A stretch of DNA of 64,000 nt from Frischella japonica (GTDB taxonomy: Bacteria; Pseudomonadota; Gammaproteobacteria; Enterobacterales; Orbaceae), in contig NZ_JABURY010000016.1 in NCBI RefSeq assembly GCF_014489845.1, positions 1-64,000 of the forward strand. The letters run 5' to 3'. Made by a program: the position numbers and the translations under genes. The notes under the pieces are model-generated. The model did no database searches and was not told where the DNA came from. It saw only the letters and a program-made list of their open reading frames with translations. Below are positions 59,682 to 64,000 of this stretch, piece after piece. The first letter of the stretch is position 1; each line of letters starts with the position of its first letter.

Positions 59682-60569
59682 ATGATTTTGGCAACAAACT
59701 TTTATAATATAGAACGAAGTTTTGATTTTTTATATTTAATAATGATAATAAATAATAGCTTTAACTCTTATCAAGATTTCTTTGTTTCCGAACACCAAAA
59801 TATTGTTATAACATCTCGATTACCGAAAGCATATTCAATCAATTCTGAATTTAGTAAAATTACTTTAATAAAAAAAGGAATTGGTTTGCATGTTGTTAAC
59901 GGCAAACCTTACCCAATTTATCCTGGAATGTTATTTTTTACTCAATCCACTGATTTACATATCTATGAACATACAGAAAATTTAGAGGCAATTAGTATTT
60001 TATACTTACCATCTTCCTATTTTGTTTTAATAAAAGGATTTGAAGCTTTAATCCCAAAACAGTTTGCCTCATTCCATATCCATCGTTTTTTAGATAAAAA
60101 TAGTGTAAATACGATTGAAATGTCTTTAAATAAACTGATCGCGAGTGCAAAAAAAACTTATATTGAACAAGAGAGTCTATTTTTACGTTTTTTAGTTAAT
60201 TTAAGGCATTGTAGTTATCACTATAATCAGGAAAATAGTAGCGAACGCCGTTTTTTACGGTTAATACGCTGGCTACTCTATAATTTTGACGAGAATATTA
60301 ACTGGAATGCACTATCCGAACAATTTTCCGTTCCAATTCGGACTCTACATCGTTATTTAGATAAAGATATCAATCTTTCACCACAGCGTTTTGTCACAAA
60401 ATTAAGATTGTTTAATGCCTATTATCAATTGTTATATACAAATGAGTCGGTCATTTCCGTTGCCATGGCAAATGGCTTTGAAGATCAATCCTATTTTGCT
60501 ACCTGTTTCAAGAAAGAATTTGGCGTTTCACCTCGCACCATACAAATGTCGGGAGGTAAGCGAATATAA
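59682..60569 (+). CDS. AraC family transcriptional regulator of the PTS cluster
   Basis: 295 residues. The C-terminal AraC DNA-binding domain has both helix-turn-helix units: INWNALSEQFSVPIRTLHRYL and ISVAMANGFEDQSYFATCFK with KKEFGVSPRTIQ. The N-terminal half is a cupin-like sensor (GIGLHVVNGKPYPIYPGMLFF). ATG at 59742 is a possible later start. It is 219 bp upstream of the PTS genes, co-directional, and probably activates them in response to the sugar or its phosphate. Confidence 0.88.
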   Translation: MILATNFYNIERSFDFLYLIMIINNSFNSYQDFFVSEHQNIVITSRLPKAYSINSEFSKITLIKKGIGLHVVNGKPYPIYPGMLFFTQSTDLHIYEHTENLEAISILYLPSSYFVLIKGFEALIPKQFASFHIHRFLDKNSVNTIEMSLNKLIASAKKTYIEQESLFLRFLVNLRHCSYHYNQENSSERRFLRLIRWLLYNFDENINWNALSEQFSVPIRTLHRYLDKDINLSPQRFVTKLRLFNAYYQLLYTNESVISVAMANGFEDQSYFATCFKKEFGVSPRTIQMSGGKRI

Positions 60570-60603
60570 ATTTTAACTTTGCAATATTGAACCTTTTTCA
60601 TAT

Positions 60604-60623
60604 TTTGTGAACCTCATCACTTA
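60604..60623 (+). promoter_or_regulatory. Probable CRP site
   Basis: TGTGA-ACCTCA-TCACT (60606-60621) has the 6-base spacing of the CRP consensus and nine or ten matching positions. It lies about 170 bp upstream of the PTS IIA gene, as expected for a catabolite-controlled operon. Confidence 0.65.
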
Positions 60624-60630
60624 CCTATTT

Positions 60631-60659
60631 AAAACTTGGACAATATAAATAAAAACTTG
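60631..60659 (+). promoter_or_regulatory. Direct repeats 21 bp apart, candidate AraC-family half-sites
   Basis: AAAACTTG occurs at 60631-60638 and 60652-60659, a 21-bp period (two helical turns), the typical spacing for AraC-type activator half-sites. The extended sequence also holds an inverted pair TGGACAA/TTGTCCA. It sits next to the CRP site. Confidence 0.5.
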
Positions 60660-60717
60660 TCCATGAGTTTAATGAAATATTTATTCTATATATTAATCTT
60701 AATACCTAAATAAATGC

Positions 60718-60740
60718 TTCTTATAAAGAGTTTATAAGAA
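60718..60740. promoter_or_regulatory. Perfect 23-bp palindrome before PTS IIA
   Basis: Arms TTCTTATAAA and TTTATAAGAA flank GAG. It ends 48 bp before the IIA start codon and may be an operator or a leader hairpin. Confidence 0.5.
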
Positions 60741-60788
60741 TTAAAGTATTGTTTTTATTTAATAAATACTATAGGGGATTGAGATACC

Positions 60789-61259
60789 ATGTCTATTGCA
60801 GACCAATTTTTGCACAAGTCTTTAATACAATTTAAGCAACACTATGATTGTCAGGAAGCATTTTTTTCGGAACTTAATCAAAGGTTATCTACACAAGGAT
60901 ATGTTGAAGAAAGTTATTTATCTAACATTATCAGCAGAGAAAATATCTATCCAACGGGTTTAGTTACTTCCACAATAAATATTGCAATTCCACATACTGA
61001 CCCTCAACACATTAAAAAACCTTTTATTGATATAACGAAATTAAATTCCCCTCTGACATTTATTGAAATGGGCAGTACTGATAAAAAAGTAGATGTCACT
61101 TGGATTTTTGCACTGGGTGTCACAAATGGTGCAAATCAAGTCGAGCTATTGCAAAAACTAATGCGGCTATGTAGTCAAAAAACAACTATAAATAAACTTC
61201 AATCTTTAACTGATATTGAAGAAATTTATCAATTCTTTTCACTAAATATAGACTTATGA
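60789..61259 (+). CDS. PTS sugar transporter EIIA, fructose/galactitol type
   Basis: 156 residues of the PTS EIIA-2 family (GatA/FruA-like). The phosphorylated His69 lies in NIAIPHTDPQHI. The N-terminal ESYLSNIISRENIYPTGL and the DVTWIFALGV segment fit the family. It takes phosphate from HPr and passes it to the EIIB at 62122. First gene of the operon, with GGGGATTGAG before the ATG. Confidence 0.9.
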   Translation: MSIADQFLHKSLIQFKQHYDCQEAFFSELNQRLSTQGYVEESYLSNIISRENIYPTGLVTSTINIAIPHTDPQHIKKPFIDITKLNSPLTFIEMGSTDKKVDVTWIFALGVTNGANQVELLQKLMRLCSQKTTINKLQSLTDIEEIYQFFSLNIDL

Positions 61260-61269
61260 GGTAAATTCT

Positions 61270-62091
61270 ATGATCAAACATAATATTGAAACAGCACCAT
61301 TTATACGTGAAATGTGTGATATTACATACAAATTATGGCAAAAAGGTTGGGCTGAAAGAAATGGTGGTAATATCAGTTATTTATTAAAAGAAGAAGAAGT
61401 TGCACCATACTTGGATACATCAAAAATTATTTCGGAATCCGTTATGCCAATTCCCATTCCAGAATTAAAAAATAGAATATTTTTAGTTTCTGGGTCAGGA
61501 AAATATTTTCGTAATGCAATTACCAATCCTGCCGATACTTTAGTTATCATTAAAATATCTGATGATGGAACAAAATACCAAAAACTTTGGGGACTGATTA
61601 ATGGTGGAAATCCTACGAGCGAACTTGCATCGCATCTAAAATGTCATGCAACACGATTAAGTGTTGATCCTGAACATCGTGTCATTTTCCATACCCATGC
61701 AACATCAACCATTGCTATGACATTTGTACATGATTTGGATGAATCAAAATTCACTAAAACATTATGGCAACAAATAACAGAATGTTTGATCGTCTTTCCG
61801 GATGGCGTCTCAATCGTGCCTTGGATGATTGCCGGTACAGTTGAACTTGGTTGGGAATCAGCACGTAGAATGGAATATTGTCGGGTGGTAATTTGGGCTC
61901 ATCATGGAATTATGGGTGCTGGCACTAGTATGGATGATGCTTTTGGGTTGGTTGAAACTGTAGATAAAGCGGCTGATATTTATTTACAATCCGCCTCGGT
62001 TACTACGGGTATTAAACAATCTATTACAACTGAACAACTTAAAAGTTTAGCTAAAGCATTTAATGTCGTTCCCCGTGAAGGTATTTTGTAG
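61270..62091 (+). CDS. rhaD: Rhamnulose-1-phosphate aldolase (RhaD type)
   Basis: Class II zinc aldolase, 273 residues against 274 in E. coli RhaD. Zinc ligands His141, His143 (IFHTHATS) and His212 (WAHHGIMG) and the catalytic Glu118 (NPTSELASH) stand at almost the same numbers as in E. coli. AERNGGNISYLL and VSGSGKYFRN are also shared. RhaD cleaves L-rhamnulose 1-phosphate to glycerone phosphate and L-lactaldehyde and accepts related ketose 1-phosphates. rhaA and rhaB are not here; PTS genes surround it, so the substrate may come already phosphorylated. Confidence 0.88.
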   Translation: MIKHNIETAPFIREMCDITYKLWQKGWAERNGGNISYLLKEEEVAPYLDTSKIISESVMPIPIPELKNRIFLVSGSGKYFRNAITNPADTLVIIKISDDGTKYQKLWGLINGGNPTSELASHLKCHATRLSVDPEHRVIFHTHATSTIAMTFVHDLDESKFTKTLWQQITECLIVFPDGVSIVPWMIAGTVELGWESARRMEYCRVVIWAHHGIMGAGTSMDDAFGLVETVDKAADIYLQSASVTTGIKQSITTEQLKSLAKAFNVVPREGIL

Positions 62092-62121
62092 TTGATGAAT
62101 AAATAAAAAGGAAGCATGTTT

Positions 62122-62421
62122 ATGAAAAATATTAATGTAATCTCTGTATGTGGTTCTGGAACAGTAACAAGCTCTATGGTTGCAGAGAAGGTTAAAGATA
62201 TTCTTGAAGTGAATGGGTATAAGGCTAAAACAGTAGAAGTCAATCCTGGTGGGGTTGATGGTCAATTAACTTCAGGAAAATGGGATATTATTGTTCACAC
62301 CAGTCCCTTAAAAGGGACTTATCAGCTTCCTTGTATAAATGCTGTTGGTTTATTAACAGGATTAGATGAAGAAGGCTTTATTGAAGAACTATTAAAAACT
62401 ATTGAAAAACTCGATATTTAG
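62122..62421 (+). CDS. PTS sugar transporter EIIB, galactitol (GatB) type
   Basis: About 99 residues. The phospho-accepting Cys10 lies in VISVCGSGTVTSSMVAEKV, as in GatB/UlaB-like domains. The frame opens at ATG 62116, but AAGGA is well spaced only for ATG 62122. It lies 30 bp after the aldolase gene and 52 bp before the EIIC gene. Confidence 0.9.
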   Translation: MKNINVISVCGSGTVTSSMVAEKVKDILEVNGYKAKTVEVNPGGVDGQLTSGKWDIIVHTSPLKGTYQLPCINAVGLLTGLDEEGFIEELLKTIEKLDI

Positions 62422-62473
62422 TTCTGTTCAATATAACAAAGCATTTATCCGATAATATAAGGAGATAATATCT

Positions 62474-63892
62474 ATGTTAGAGTATTTATCAAAAATTATG
62501 GGGGCTTTCGGTGCAGCTATTATTGTACCCATTGTCATATTCTTTATTGCTTTAATTATGAAAGTTAAAGTAAAAAAAGCATTTCAATCCGCATTGAATG
62601 CCGGTATCGGTTTAACCGGTTTTGGTATGCTTATCGGGGCATACACACCAGTGGTTACCCCTGTGATCAATAGAATGGTTGAAGATTCAGGTATATCATT
62701 GCGAATCTTGGATACTGGTTGGCAAGCGACAAGTGTTGTTGCTTACTCAACACAGGTTGGCATGATCTTTTTAGGATTAGGGCTTTTGTTCCAAATCATT
62801 TTATTTGTTACACGTTATACTAATATTTTCATGCCGTCAGACATGTGGAATAACTTTTCATTTATGTTGTGGGGCTCAATGCTTTATATTGCAACTGGAA
62901 ATATTTATCTTGCGATTGGTTTAATGATTCTATCTAATCTATATTCGCTCGTATGTTCTGAAATTGTTGCTAAAAGATGGTCAACTTATTATGGTTATCC
63001 TGGGTGTACCATGACAGCGCCACATCATGTATGTTCTGTACCACTGGCTATTGTTGTTGATTGGATCTTAAATAAACTTGGTGCAAATAAAGTTCAGTGG
63101 AATCCGCAAACTCTTCAAGCAAAATTAGGATTTATGGGTGAACCTATATCTTTAGGTCTAGTACTAGGTTGCTTAATTGGTTTAGCTGGCAATTTTACGC
63201 GTTTAGATACAATTGAAGCTTGGGGTGAAATGCTTAAAGTTGGAGTAGCAACGGCTGCCGTGATGTGTATTTTTCCGAAAATTGCTGGGGTATTTGCATC
63301 CGCTTTCACTACCATAACTGATTCATCAAGAAAAACTGCCAAGAAAGGAAGTAAAGATCGCGTTTGGTTCTTAGCAATTAATGATGCTGCTGGTTATGGT
63401 GAGTCAGCAACATTACTCACAGGTATGTTGTTAATTCCTATCATTTTTATTTTAGCTATCATTTTACCGGGTAATGAAACATTACCAATGGTTGACTTAA
63501 TTGCAATTCCTTACATGATTGAATTGATTATTGCGATCAGTAATGGGAATATTTTCAAATCGCTAATATCTGGAACAATTTGGTGTGTCGGTGGCCTTTA
63601 CATCATTACCAACGTAGCCCCAGTATTTACTTCTGTAGCGCAAGATGTTGGCGTGATATTACCGGCCGGTGCTATGTTAATTTGTAGCTTTGCTGTTATG
63701 ACCAATCACTTAATGGGTGGATTATTTATTATCTTTTTAACCCAAAACCCTGTCTATATTGCCTTAAGTGTTATTGTCTACATCGTATTTTATCTGTTTG
63801 TCCGCTTTAAGAGAGAGGCGATACATGATTATTTAGAAAGACAAGCTTTGGGCATTAATAATAAAGAAGAACTAGTAGGAGAATCACAATGA
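62474..63892 (+). CDS. PTS sugar transporter EIIC, galactitol (GatC) type
   Basis: 472 residues with about ten to twelve hydrophobic segments. GatC family features: KKAFQSALNAGIGLTGFGML near the N-terminus, PSDMWNNFSFMLWGSMLY, and YGESATLLTGMLLIPIIFIL in the second half. Galactitol, and in related proteins other polyols and ketoses, are transported. AAGGAGATAATA precedes the ATG. Its TGA overlaps the next ATG (ATGA). Confidence 0.9.
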   Translation: MLEYLSKIMGAFGAAIIVPIVIFFIALIMKVKVKKAFQSALNAGIGLTGFGMLIGAYTPVVTPVINRMVEDSGISLRILDTGWQATSVVAYSTQVGMIFLGLGLLFQIILFVTRYTNIFMPSDMWNNFSFMLWGSMLYIATGNIYLAIGLMILSNLYSLVCSEIVAKRWSTYYGYPGCTMTAPHHVCSVPLAIVVDWILNKLGANKVQWNPQTLQAKLGFMGEPISLGLVLGCLIGLAGNFTRLDTIEAWGEMLKVGVATAAVMCIFPKIAGVFASAFTTITDSSRKTAKKGSKDRVWFLAINDAAGYGESATLLTGMLLIPIIFILAIILPGNETLPMVDLIAIPYMIELIIAISNGNIFKSLISGTIWCVGGLYIITNVAPVFTSVAQDVGVILPAGAMLICSFAVMTNHLMGGLFIIFLTQNPVYIALSVIVYIVFYLFVRFKREAIHDYLERQALGINNKEELVGESQ

Positions 63893-64000
63893 AAATAGTT
63901 GTTATAGGCGACGCATTAGTAAGCTCGGCAACGCTAGTTGATGCTGCGAAACAGATTCAGTTTCCAGGAAGTGATGAACAAATAGAATTTAAAATATTTG
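63889..64000 (+). CDS. Partial gene, possible D-isomer 2-hydroxyacid dehydrogenase
   Basis: The ATG at 63889 overlaps the EIIC stop; the frame runs off the window edge after 37 codons (MKIVVIGDALVSSATLVDAA and KQIQFPGSDEQIEFKIF). GGAG lies eight bases upstream. The start resembles D-2-hydroxyacid dehydrogenases related to phosphoglycerate dehydrogenase, but too little is visible for a firm call. As last visible gene of the PTS-aldolase operon it may act on a product such as lactaldehyde-derived lactate, or on another intermediate; this is speculation. Confidence 0.45.
   Translation, partial: MKIVVIGDALVSSATLVDAAKQIQFPGSDEQIEFKIF

What the first reader, a model, noticed from the sequence alone, without database searches (positions are those of the whole stretch)
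60789..64000. PTS-coupled aldolase operon that may bypass isomerase and kinase
A RhaD-type aldolase with all catalytic residues sits between Gat-type EIIA, EIIB and EIIC genes, with an AraC regulator upstream and a possible dehydrogenase downstream. In known rhamnose pathways the sugar enters by RhaT, is isomerised (RhaA) and phosphorylated (RhaB) before RhaD. Here the PTS could import a ketose (L-rhamnulose, or another 6-deoxy or plain ketose) as its 1-phosphate, which RhaD cleaves at once to glycerone phosphate and an aldehyde. I know of galactitol and sorbose PTS systems, but not of this exact arrangement.
Basis: partly seen in the sequence, partly recalled or inferred. Interest (0 to 1): 0.78.

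Follow-up and report, generated by a model that had tools for sequence, protein, structure and literature searches.

The report
PTS-coupled rhamnulose aldolase sugar operon
This bacterium carries an operon that appears to import a rare sugar or sugar alcohol already phosphorylated and to split it with a rhamnose-pathway aldolase, so that the usual isomerase and kinase are not needed; the same operon recurs in a few relatives and in enterococci.

Summary
A RhaS-like regulator, EIIA, RhaD, EIIB and EIIC lie in order at 59682-63892, with PTS phosphorylation sites and aldolase catalytic residues intact. Beyond 64000 follow a D-2-hydroxyacid dehydrogenase (HADH) and a lactaldehyde reductase (FucO). 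The genome has no RhaA, RhaT or rhamnulokinase and one RhaD, this one. EIIA-RhaD-EIIB-EIIC-HADH recurs in 21 other genomes (4 Gammaproteobacteria, 17 Lactobacillales). Two comparisons support the assignment. In near-complete Orbaceae genomes with rhaA, a rhaD lies beside it in 14 of 14 lacking this operon and 0 of 2 carrying it. In four sister operons FucA replaces RhaD while PTS and HADH stay. So the PTS product probably becomes a ketose 1-phosphate cut to DHAP and L-lactaldehyde (or glycolaldehyde). That step is inferred. No paper listed by my searches described the arrangement. New variant of a known kind.

The parts
59682..60569 (+). AraC-family regulator, RhaS-like; the ORF starts at 59682 but the RhaS match begins at residue 31, so the true start may lie downstream
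   Evidence: NF010028 RhaS 223.7 bits (cut-off 288), RhaR 94 bits; HTH_18. Relatives 64-69% identical beside the operons of G002, Budvicia and RIT691; the two AraC genes beside that of Zophobihabitans are only 37% and 29%.
60606..60621 (.). CRP-like palindrome TGTGA-N6-TCACT upstream of EIIA
   Evidence: best upstream match to TGTGA-N6-TCACA with 0-1 mismatch in 5 of 5 gammaproteobacterial operons, at -160 to -185; the one Enterococcus upstream region tried has 3 mismatches; the only match of this quality in the 20 kb around. The consensus is recalled.
60789..61259 (+). PTS EIIA (PTS_EIIA_2), phosphorylation site His69 (IPH)
   Evidence: PF00359 107 bits. IPH kept in 18 of 18 type A EIIAs looked at.
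61270..62091 (+). RhaD-type L-rhamnulose-1-phosphate aldolase
   Evidence: NF002963 350 bits over cut-off 170; E. coli RhaD 1gt7 at 1.5e-71 with the catalytic residues; the only RhaD match in the genome.
62116..62421 (+). PTS EIIB, phosphorylation site Cys12 (CGSG)
   Evidence: PF02302 27.4 bits (cut-off 23.6); CGSGTVTS kept in 20 of 20 EIIBs checked, one genome counted twice and Oceanobacillus included.
62474..63892 (+). PTS EIIC of the Gat family (PF03611), a subfamily separate from GatC
   Evidence: EIIC-GAT 236 bits; TIGR00827 260 bits against a cut-off of 542.
63889..64000 (+). Start of the D-2-hydroxyacid dehydrogenase (HADH), which runs to 64938 in contig coordinates (L002:8889-9938), past the window; its start overlaps EIIC by 4 bp. 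FucO follows at 64992-66146 (L002:9992-11146), outside the window.
   Evidence: 2-Hacid_dh domains, best PDB match phosphoglycerate dehydrogenase 1wwk; FucO NF007911 697 bits over cut-off 537.

Best explanation
This is a PTS-coupled DHAP-aldolase operon. A Gat-type enzyme II (EIIA, EIIB, EIIC) imports a substrate and phosphorylates it on C1. The product becomes a ketulose 1-phosphate of L-rhamnulose type, most likely L-rhamnulose 1-phosphate, which RhaD cleaves to DHAP and L-lactaldehyde; FucO reduces the lactaldehyde to 1,2-propanediol. No isomerase or ATP kinase is used. The conserved HADH most likely works between PTS and aldolase: the PTS imports an alditol (a 6-deoxyhexitol such as L-rhamnitol, or a pentitol), and HADH oxidises the C2 hydroxyl next to the phosphorylated CH2 to give the ketulose 1-phosphate, with NAD recycled by FucO. 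A RhaS-like AraC protein and CRP probably control it. Shown by sequence and genome comparison: the parts, their conservation, RhaD as the genome's only member of the rhamnulose aldolase family, absence of RhaA/RhaB/RhaT. Inferred: C1 phosphorylation, the substrate, the HADH reaction, the control. The confidence is for the core (PTS product enters RhaD without isomerase or kinase and yields DHAP plus a 2-hydroxyaldehyde); the alditol/HADH step alone I put at about 0.4.
For: Gene order EIIA-RhaD-EIIB-EIIC-HADH in 22 genomes with the window. Own genome: RhaA 0 hits, RhaT 0, its one hit to the rhamnulokinase model a xylulokinase, one RhaD. Loss of the canonical rhaD: in Orbaceae genomes at least 90% complete and with RhaA, the RhaD match ends 22-32 bp from the RhaA match in 14 of 14 without this operon and 0 of 2 with it (P = 1/120). 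In G002 rhaB-rhaA-rhaT-fucO-rhaM lacks just rhaD, where two relatives read rhaA-rhaD-rhaT-fucO. Sister operons keep PTS and HADH but have FucA instead of RhaD: L086, L087, L088, L127 (FucA model passed by L086); Oceanobacillus has FucA plus bifunctional RhaEW. FucO follows in 15 of 17 Lactobacillales operons and in the window. HADH in 22 of 22; its nearest solved relatives are phosphoglycerate dehydrogenases, which oxidise the carbon next to CH2-O-P (recalled); Arg, Glu, His and an RGG motif are kept.
Against: No assay, expression or growth data. I recall no D-2-hydroxyacid dehydrogenase that oxidises an alditol phosphate, and the conserved Arg normally binds a carboxylate (recalled). HADH is not tied to these aldolases without exception: L131 has PTS, MDR, AraD and HADH but no RhaD or FucA was recognised, and three loci with EIIC at 57-63% (L128-L130) show none of the partner genes. 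FucO is not in the operon in 4 of 5 gammaproteobacterial cases (in Zophobihabitans it lies nearby on the other strand) and was not recognised in L126; in L046 the contig ends first. Zophobihabitans has RhaA but no RhaB, which fits direct phosphorylation of the ketose. The rhaD-loss argument rests on two genomes; with the incomplete genomes counted, two of which (G034, G036) have RhaA and no RhaD match, it is 15 of 17 against 0 of 2 (P = 6/171). PTS-linked RhaDs differ from canonical ones at sites near the catalytic HxH and HHG, so the native substrate may differ.
Confidence: 0.65

Rival explanations
1. Direct ketose route: the PTS imports or phosphorylates a ketose, L-rhamnulose first of all, as its 1-phosphate, and RhaD cleaves it at once. 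HADH does something secondary, for example redox balance as a lactate dehydrogenase.
For: G043 has RhaA and FucO close to the operon but no RhaB over cut-off and no RhaT, so the EII could be its rhamnulose kinase. No enzyme needs to act between EII and RhaD.
Against: HADH is in 22 of 22 operons and in all 4 FucA sister operons without an obvious task. Its RGG motif is shared with FucA-linked and MDR-linked HADHs, which argues for a dedicated pathway step. A 498-aa XylB-like FGGY kinase in G043 (289 bits, under the XylB cut-off of 380) could act as rhamnulokinase.
Confidence: 0.3
2. Pentose-level variant: the substrate is xylitol, L-arabitol or L-xylulose; the intermediate is L-xylulose 1-phosphate, RhaD gives DHAP and glycolaldehyde, and FucO makes ethylene glycol. 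(It overlaps with the best explanation in mechanism and differs in substrate.)
For: L-xylulose has the same C3/C4 configuration as L-rhamnulose, and RhaB and RhaD serve L-lyxose through L-xylulose 1-phosphate in E. coli mutants (recalled). Related Enterococcus operons pair RhaD-HADH or FucA-HADH with MDR and AraD-like genes, in L093 also a transketolase half, a pentitol signature.
Against: No AraD or MDR gene was recognised in the type A operons; their links are to rhamnose genes: rhaD loss in G002, RhaA in G043, side by side with rhaB-rhaA-rhaD-rhaM in E. hulanensis.
Confidence: 0.25
3. Sugar-acid route: the PTS imports a keto-aldonate (for example a 4-keto-pentonate or 5-keto-hexonate) phosphorylated next to its keto group; the aldolase gives DHAP plus glyoxylate or tartronate semialdehyde/hydroxypyruvate, which HADH reduces as a glyoxylate/hydroxypyruvate reductase.
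For: Fits the known chemistry of the D-2-hydroxyacid dehydrogenase family and its invariant Arg (chemistry recalled). A weak EIIC relative (43.5%) sits with ascorbate genes in L. brevis.
Against: Does not explain FucO in 15 of 17 Lactobacillales operons and in the window, RhaEW in Oceanobacillus, or the link to rhamnose genes.
Confidence: 0.1
4. Hitch-hiker: RhaD lies in the PTS operon but serves only the ordinary rhamnose pathway, and the PTS substrate is processed otherwise.
For: G002 seems to use this RhaD for its rhamnose operon.
Against: The window genome and five Enterococcus genomes (G046, G047, G052, G055, G056) have the operon and no RhaA match; FucA takes RhaD's part in sister operons.
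Confidence: 0.05

Closest known systems
Phosphorylative L-rhamnose pathway (RhaT-RhaA-RhaB-RhaD-FucO) of E. coli and others
   Same: RhaD aldolase, FucO lactaldehyde reductase, RhaS-like regulator
   Different: No RhaA, RhaB, RhaT; a PTS and a D-2-hydroxyacid dehydrogenase instead. PMC3870299 (passages seen) names a symporter and ABC rhamnose transporters; 'phosphotransferase' occurs 0 times in its text.
Galactitol PTS operon (GatABC with GatD and tagatose-bisphosphate aldolase; recalled)
   Same: EIIA, EIIB, EIIC of the same families; polyol-type PTS
   Different: EIIC far below the GatC cut-off; no GatD-like gene in the operon; a DHAP aldolase of the RhaD family acts on a 1-phosphate.
D-arabitol PTS pathway of Bacillus methanolicus (PMC6685057; search listing only)
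   Same: PTS import of an alditol followed by a phosphate-level dehydrogenase is the assumed logic (recalled)
   Different: The dehydrogenase is recalled as an MDR enzyme leading to the pentose phosphate pathway; no RhaD cleavage.
RhaEW, bifunctional rhamnulose-1-P aldolase/lactaldehyde dehydrogenase (PMC3870299, passages)
   Same: Cleaves L-rhamnulose 1-phosphate; found with FucA, HADH and the same EIIC type in Oceanobacillus
   Different: Not in the window; a fused protein that oxidises lactaldehyde.

Membership tests
L-rhamnulose-1-phosphate aldolase (RhaD) | Score over a curated RhaD model | tested here: met
   NF002963 350 bits over 170; but TIGR02624 367 bits under 401.
L-rhamnulose-1-phosphate aldolase (RhaD) | Zn ligands H141, H143, H212 and catalytic E117, E171 (numbering of E. 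coli; roles recalled) | tested here: met
L-rhamnulose-1-phosphate aldolase (RhaD) | Activity on L-rhamnulose 1-phosphate | not testable with these tools
   Indirect: the only RhaD in G002 and G043, which have RhaA without a rhaD beside it.
PTS enzyme II of the Gat family | EIIC PF03611, EIIA with phospho-His, EIIB with phospho-Cys | tested here: met
Galactitol-specific PTS (GatABC) | EIIC over TIGR00827 cut-off | tested here: not met
   259.9 bits against 542.2.
Canonical L-rhamnose pathway | RhaA and RhaB present | tested here: not met
   no RhaA in G000; with 67: its one kinase hit is a xylulokinase.
Lactaldehyde reductase (FucO) | Score over curated model | tested here: met
   NF007911 697 bits over 537; E. 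coli FucO 1rrm 8e-177.
D-isomer-specific 2-hydroxyacid dehydrogenases | 2-Hacid_dh and 2-Hacid_dh_C domains with Arg, Glu, His triad | tested here: met
   R267, E296, H315 invariant in 12 aligned members.
D-isomer-specific 2-hydroxyacid dehydrogenases | A named equivalog (PGDH, GhrB, D-lactate DH, PdxB) fits | tested here: not met
   best TIGR01327 195 bits against 454; none of the 25 shown over cut-off.
RhaS regulator | Score over NF010028 | tested here: not met
   223.7 against 288; RhaS-like only.

The most novel reading that the evidence does not exclude
The HADH subfamily with the motif RGGxE(H/N) is a new alditol-1-phosphate 2-dehydrogenase inside the D-2-hydroxyacid dehydrogenase superfamily, and PTS-EII + this enzyme + an interchangeable DHAP aldolase (RhaD or FucA) form a modular, undescribed route for 6-deoxyhexitols or pentitols that avoids isomerase, ATP kinase and the pentose phosphate pathway.
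Probability: 0.35. Interest if true: 0.75.

Novelty: new variant of a known kind. Interest (0 to 1): 0.55.

Why it matters
If right, deoxy-sugar or polyol catabolism has a PTS entry that delivers the aldolase substrate in one or two steps at the cost of one PEP, in Orbaceae (a family widespread in insect guts, PMC11434166, abstract start in a listing) and in enterococci. It would give a substrate to an orphan EIIC subfamily, a function to an orphan dehydrogenase subfamily, and a neat case of aldolase swapping (RhaD/FucA) on one PTS chassis. It also suggests that rhamnose phenotypes cannot be read from rhaBAD operons alone: two Orbaceae genomes appear to borrow their rhaD from this operon.

Tried and rejected
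Galactitol operon: rejected, EIIC far under the GatC cut-off and no GatD-like gene in the operon. Ordinary rhamnose operon cut by the window edge: rejected, no RhaA or RhaT match in the genome and no rhamnulokinase over cut-off. Fucose route in the window: the aldolase is RhaD, not FucA. The dehydrogenase as GatD-like: rejected, it is a D-2-hydroxyacid dehydrogenase.

Led nowhere or little: plasmid searches for EIIC, HADH and RhaD gave only matches under 60% identity, useful for context alone; the E. faecalis plasmid hit shows no annotated gene in the stretch. Papers: no listed title or abstract start described a PTS tied to a rhamnulose aldolase, for rhamnose/rhamnulose/rhamnitol PTS phrases, returned 0 papers; some of these lists were longer than what was shown, and the library holds open-licence PMC only. 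The promoter and terminator scan found no more than shuffles. Structure prediction was not run: without coordinates it would not decide the HADH substrate. Wider survey: EIIC at E <= 1e-90 in 1 of 394 sampled genomes of the own order (the window itself), 22 of 105 genomes of the family of Enterococcus rivorum, 33 of 395 sampled genomes of its order; many of these matches are other subfamilies (41-65% identity), and I looked at the surroundings of only some.
Full report
The observation. The window is G000:C8:1-64000, in a 2.66 Mb genome. It belongs to the family of Zophobihabitans entericus: G043, told as 'same family', has the contig length of NZ_CP050253.1, and that genus is in Orbaceae. Taking 20 kb around the edge shows what follows: a 349-aa D-2-hydroxyacid dehydrogenase (HADH, 63889-64938) whose start overlaps EIIC by 4 bp, then FucO (64992-66146), then a gap of about 0.9 kb to a gene on the other strand.

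Quality of the parts. RhaD passes NF002963 but is a little under TIGR02624. The catalytic positions of E. coli RhaD are kept (roles recalled). EIIA His69 and EIIB Cys12 are present. EIIC belongs to the Gat family but not to GatC proper. FucO passes the lactaldehyde reductase models and matches E. coli FucO (1rrm) over its length. The regulator is nearest to RhaS but under its cut-off. A CRP-like palindrome lies 160-185 bp before EIIA in all five gammaproteobacterial operons.

What the genome lacks. No RhaA match, no RhaT, one RhaD. The only hit to the rhamnulokinase model (58 bits against a cut-off of 528) passes a xylulokinase model. The genome has three class II aldolases: RhaD, one AraD, and one that reaches no curated cut-off (L114; best 133 bits against 251).

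Conservation. A pattern scan of a collection of 84,980 species genomes for EIIC gave 22 loci, 18 of them at 74-88% identity and 4 from Limosilactobacillus/Lactobacillus at 44%. I annotated these, and relatives found by other searches, by BLAST against the window proteins and a few reference genes and repeated the count at the end. The order EIIA-RhaD-EIIB-EIIC-HADH, which I call type A, is present in 21 genomes besides the window: Zophobihabitans, G002, Budvicia diplopodorum, Enterobacteriaceae RIT691, and 17 Lactobacillales (L043-L053, L055, L060, L061, L099, L100, L126). Of the 18 close loci, 17 are type A; Oceanobacillus jeddahense (L054) differs. All 17 Lactobacillales operons have a PRD-regulator-like gene, before the operon in L126 and after it in the other 16; 12 of 17 have a ~190-aa protein, of which the two examples tested (L049, L054) had no Pfam or NCBIfam match; FucO follows in 15. 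In L046 the contig ends first, and in L126 no FucO was recognised. Among the five gammaproteobacteria FucO is in the operon only in the window; in Zophobihabitans it lies close by on the other strand. The operon is rare in the own order: 1 of 394 sampled genomes, the window itself. In the family of Enterococcus rivorum 22 of 105 genomes have an EIIC at E <= 1e-90, and in a sample of its order 33 of 395; these counts include other subfamilies.

A natural test of the aldolase. In the family, 19 of 44 genomes have RhaA and 18 of 44 have a RhaD. Comparing coordinates, a RhaD match lies 22-32 bp from the RhaA match in 15 genomes, 14 of them at least 90% complete. The two genomes of that completeness with RhaA but without a RhaD beside it are G002 and G043, the two that carry both RhaA and the PTS operon; its RhaD is their only one. 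For the 16 such RhaA genomes this is 14 of 14 against 0 of 2 (P = 1/120). If incomplete genomes are counted, G034 and G036 also have RhaA and no RhaD, and the figures are 15 of 17 against 0 of 2 (P = 6/171). In G002 the operon reads rhaB-rhaA-rhaT-fucO-rhaM, whereas two relatives (L107, L108) read rhaA-rhaD-rhaT-fucO. The simplest reading is that the PTS-linked RhaD took over L-rhamnulose 1-phosphate. Two of G002's other class II aldolases are AraD-type; the third (L112), like L113 in G043 and L114 in the window genome, is unassigned and could in principle act too. In Budvicia, RIT691 and several enterococci the PTS-linked RhaD and a RhaD beside RhaA coexist, so takeover is not a rule.

A second natural test. 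Sister operons keep PTS and HADH but have a FucA-type aldolase in place of RhaD: L086, L087, L088 (EIIC 68-69%) and L127 (EIIC 64%) (the FucA model was tested and passed for L086). Oceanobacillus has EIIC, a ~200-aa protein, EIIA, EIIB and HADH followed by FucA and the bifunctional RhaEW aldolase/dehydrogenase. Thus one PTS/HADH chassis occurs with three kinds of aldolase that act on ketulose 1-phosphates. More distant operons carry RhaD-HADH with MDR and AraD (type B: L072-L077, L096, L103, L104, L105) or FucA-HADH near MDR and AraD-like genes (type F: L093, L094, L098, L101, L102; a transketolase half identified in L093). Type C operons (L079, L080) have PTS, an MDR dehydrogenase, a canonical-type RhaD and FucO but no HADH. 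Exceptions: L131 has HADH without a recognised RhaD or FucA; L092 has FucA and MDR without HADH; L090 and L091 have FucA and only a distant HADH-like gene (31-32%, without RGG); L128-L130 show the EIIC type without the other genes; L089, L095 and L097 show neither aldolase among the genes listed.

Phylogeny. In a tree of 38 RhaDs the PTS-linked types A and B fall together, apart from canonical and type C RhaDs, with support short of firm (86/96). The five gammaproteobacterial type A proteins are one clade (100/100) away from the canonical gammaproteobacterial RhaDs. This suggests transfer between Bacillota and Gammaproteobacteria; direction is not shown. Sites beside the catalytic HxH and HHG differ between the two groups.

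How it may work. RhaD needs a ketulose 1-phosphate; the only phosphorylating system in the operon is the PTS. If the PTS takes a ketose, HADH is idle. If it takes an alditol, something must oxidise C2 next to the phosphorylated carbon. HADH's nearest solved relatives are 3-phosphoglycerate dehydrogenases, which oxidise just such a carbon (recalled), and in type C operons an MDR dehydrogenase is present where HADH is missing. HADH has the family's Arg, Glu and His, and a motif RGGxE(H/N) kept in 26 of 26 HADHs of type A, FucA-sister and Oceanobacillus operons (TCRGG in 23 of them) and in the type B and F members aligned. The Arg sits in the loop that binds the substrate in this family (recalled), compatible with a second anionic group. 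Three relatives at 32-38% identity with RGG or RAG at the same place lie close to FGGY kinases, two of them also to an aldolase gene, again as if a phosphorylation step and a dehydrogenase were paired. This is inference. Against it stands Zophobihabitans: RhaA near the PTS operon, no RhaT, no rhamnulokinase over cut-off, which suggests that the EII can phosphorylate L-rhamnulose itself, unless the XylB-like kinase does so.

Literature. Rhamnose transporters in PMC3870299 (passages) include a symporter and ABC systems; the word phosphotransferase does not occur. PMC5090037 (passages) tested Gilliamella growth on rhamnose against rhaA, rhaB and rhaD; PMC11325843 (passages) reports rhamnose genes (rhaABD) in 57 of 95 genomes. 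The passages I saw mention no PTS-linked rhaD. No title or abstract start listed described the arrangement, and one search returned nothing.

Verdict.

Noticed in passing
L078:6541-12113 (G002:C1, about 891.5-897.1 kb); L107, L108: Rhamnose operon rhaB-rhaA-rhaT-fucO-rhaM without rhaD in G002; RhaT over curated cut-off here and in two relatives, although PMC11325843 (passage) reports no known rhamnose transporter gene in its Gilliamella genomes. Whether these genomes are Gilliamella was not checked.
   Followed up: partly
L112:574-1338, L113:588-1253, L114:571-1233 (G002, G043, G000): An unassigned class II aldolase (34-35% to FucA, no curated cut-off reached) beside a PRD/EIIA-like gene and within about 3 kb of another, distant EIIC in each genome.
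   Followed up: partly
L049:14575-15138 and equivalents in L043, L044, L047, L050-L053, L055, L060, L061, L100; L054:11474-12100: A protein of about 190-210 aa, conserved in 12 of 17 Lactobacillales type A operons and in Oceanobacillus; the two tested (L049, L054) have no Pfam or NCBIfam match.
   Followed up: partly
L079:5654-15009 and L080:3398-11099: Type C operons: PRD regulator, PTS, MDR dehydrogenase, canonical-type RhaD and FucO; perhaps a deoxyhexitol pathway of its own.
   Followed up: partly
L073:11257-14345: Next to the type B operon: a 415-aa gene, an IF-2B family gene and a FucA-like aldolase, reminiscent of the DHAP shunt for 5-deoxy sugars (PMC10986504, search listing only).
   Followed up: no
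L082, L083, L084: HADH relatives with RGG or RAG motifs lie close to FGGY kinases in Klebsiella, Haladaptatus and Rubrobacter; an orphan kinase-dehydrogenase pair.
   Followed up: no
L036:12715-13965 (Zophobihabitans entericus): rhaA in a genome without rhaB over cut-off and without rhaT.
   Followed up: partly
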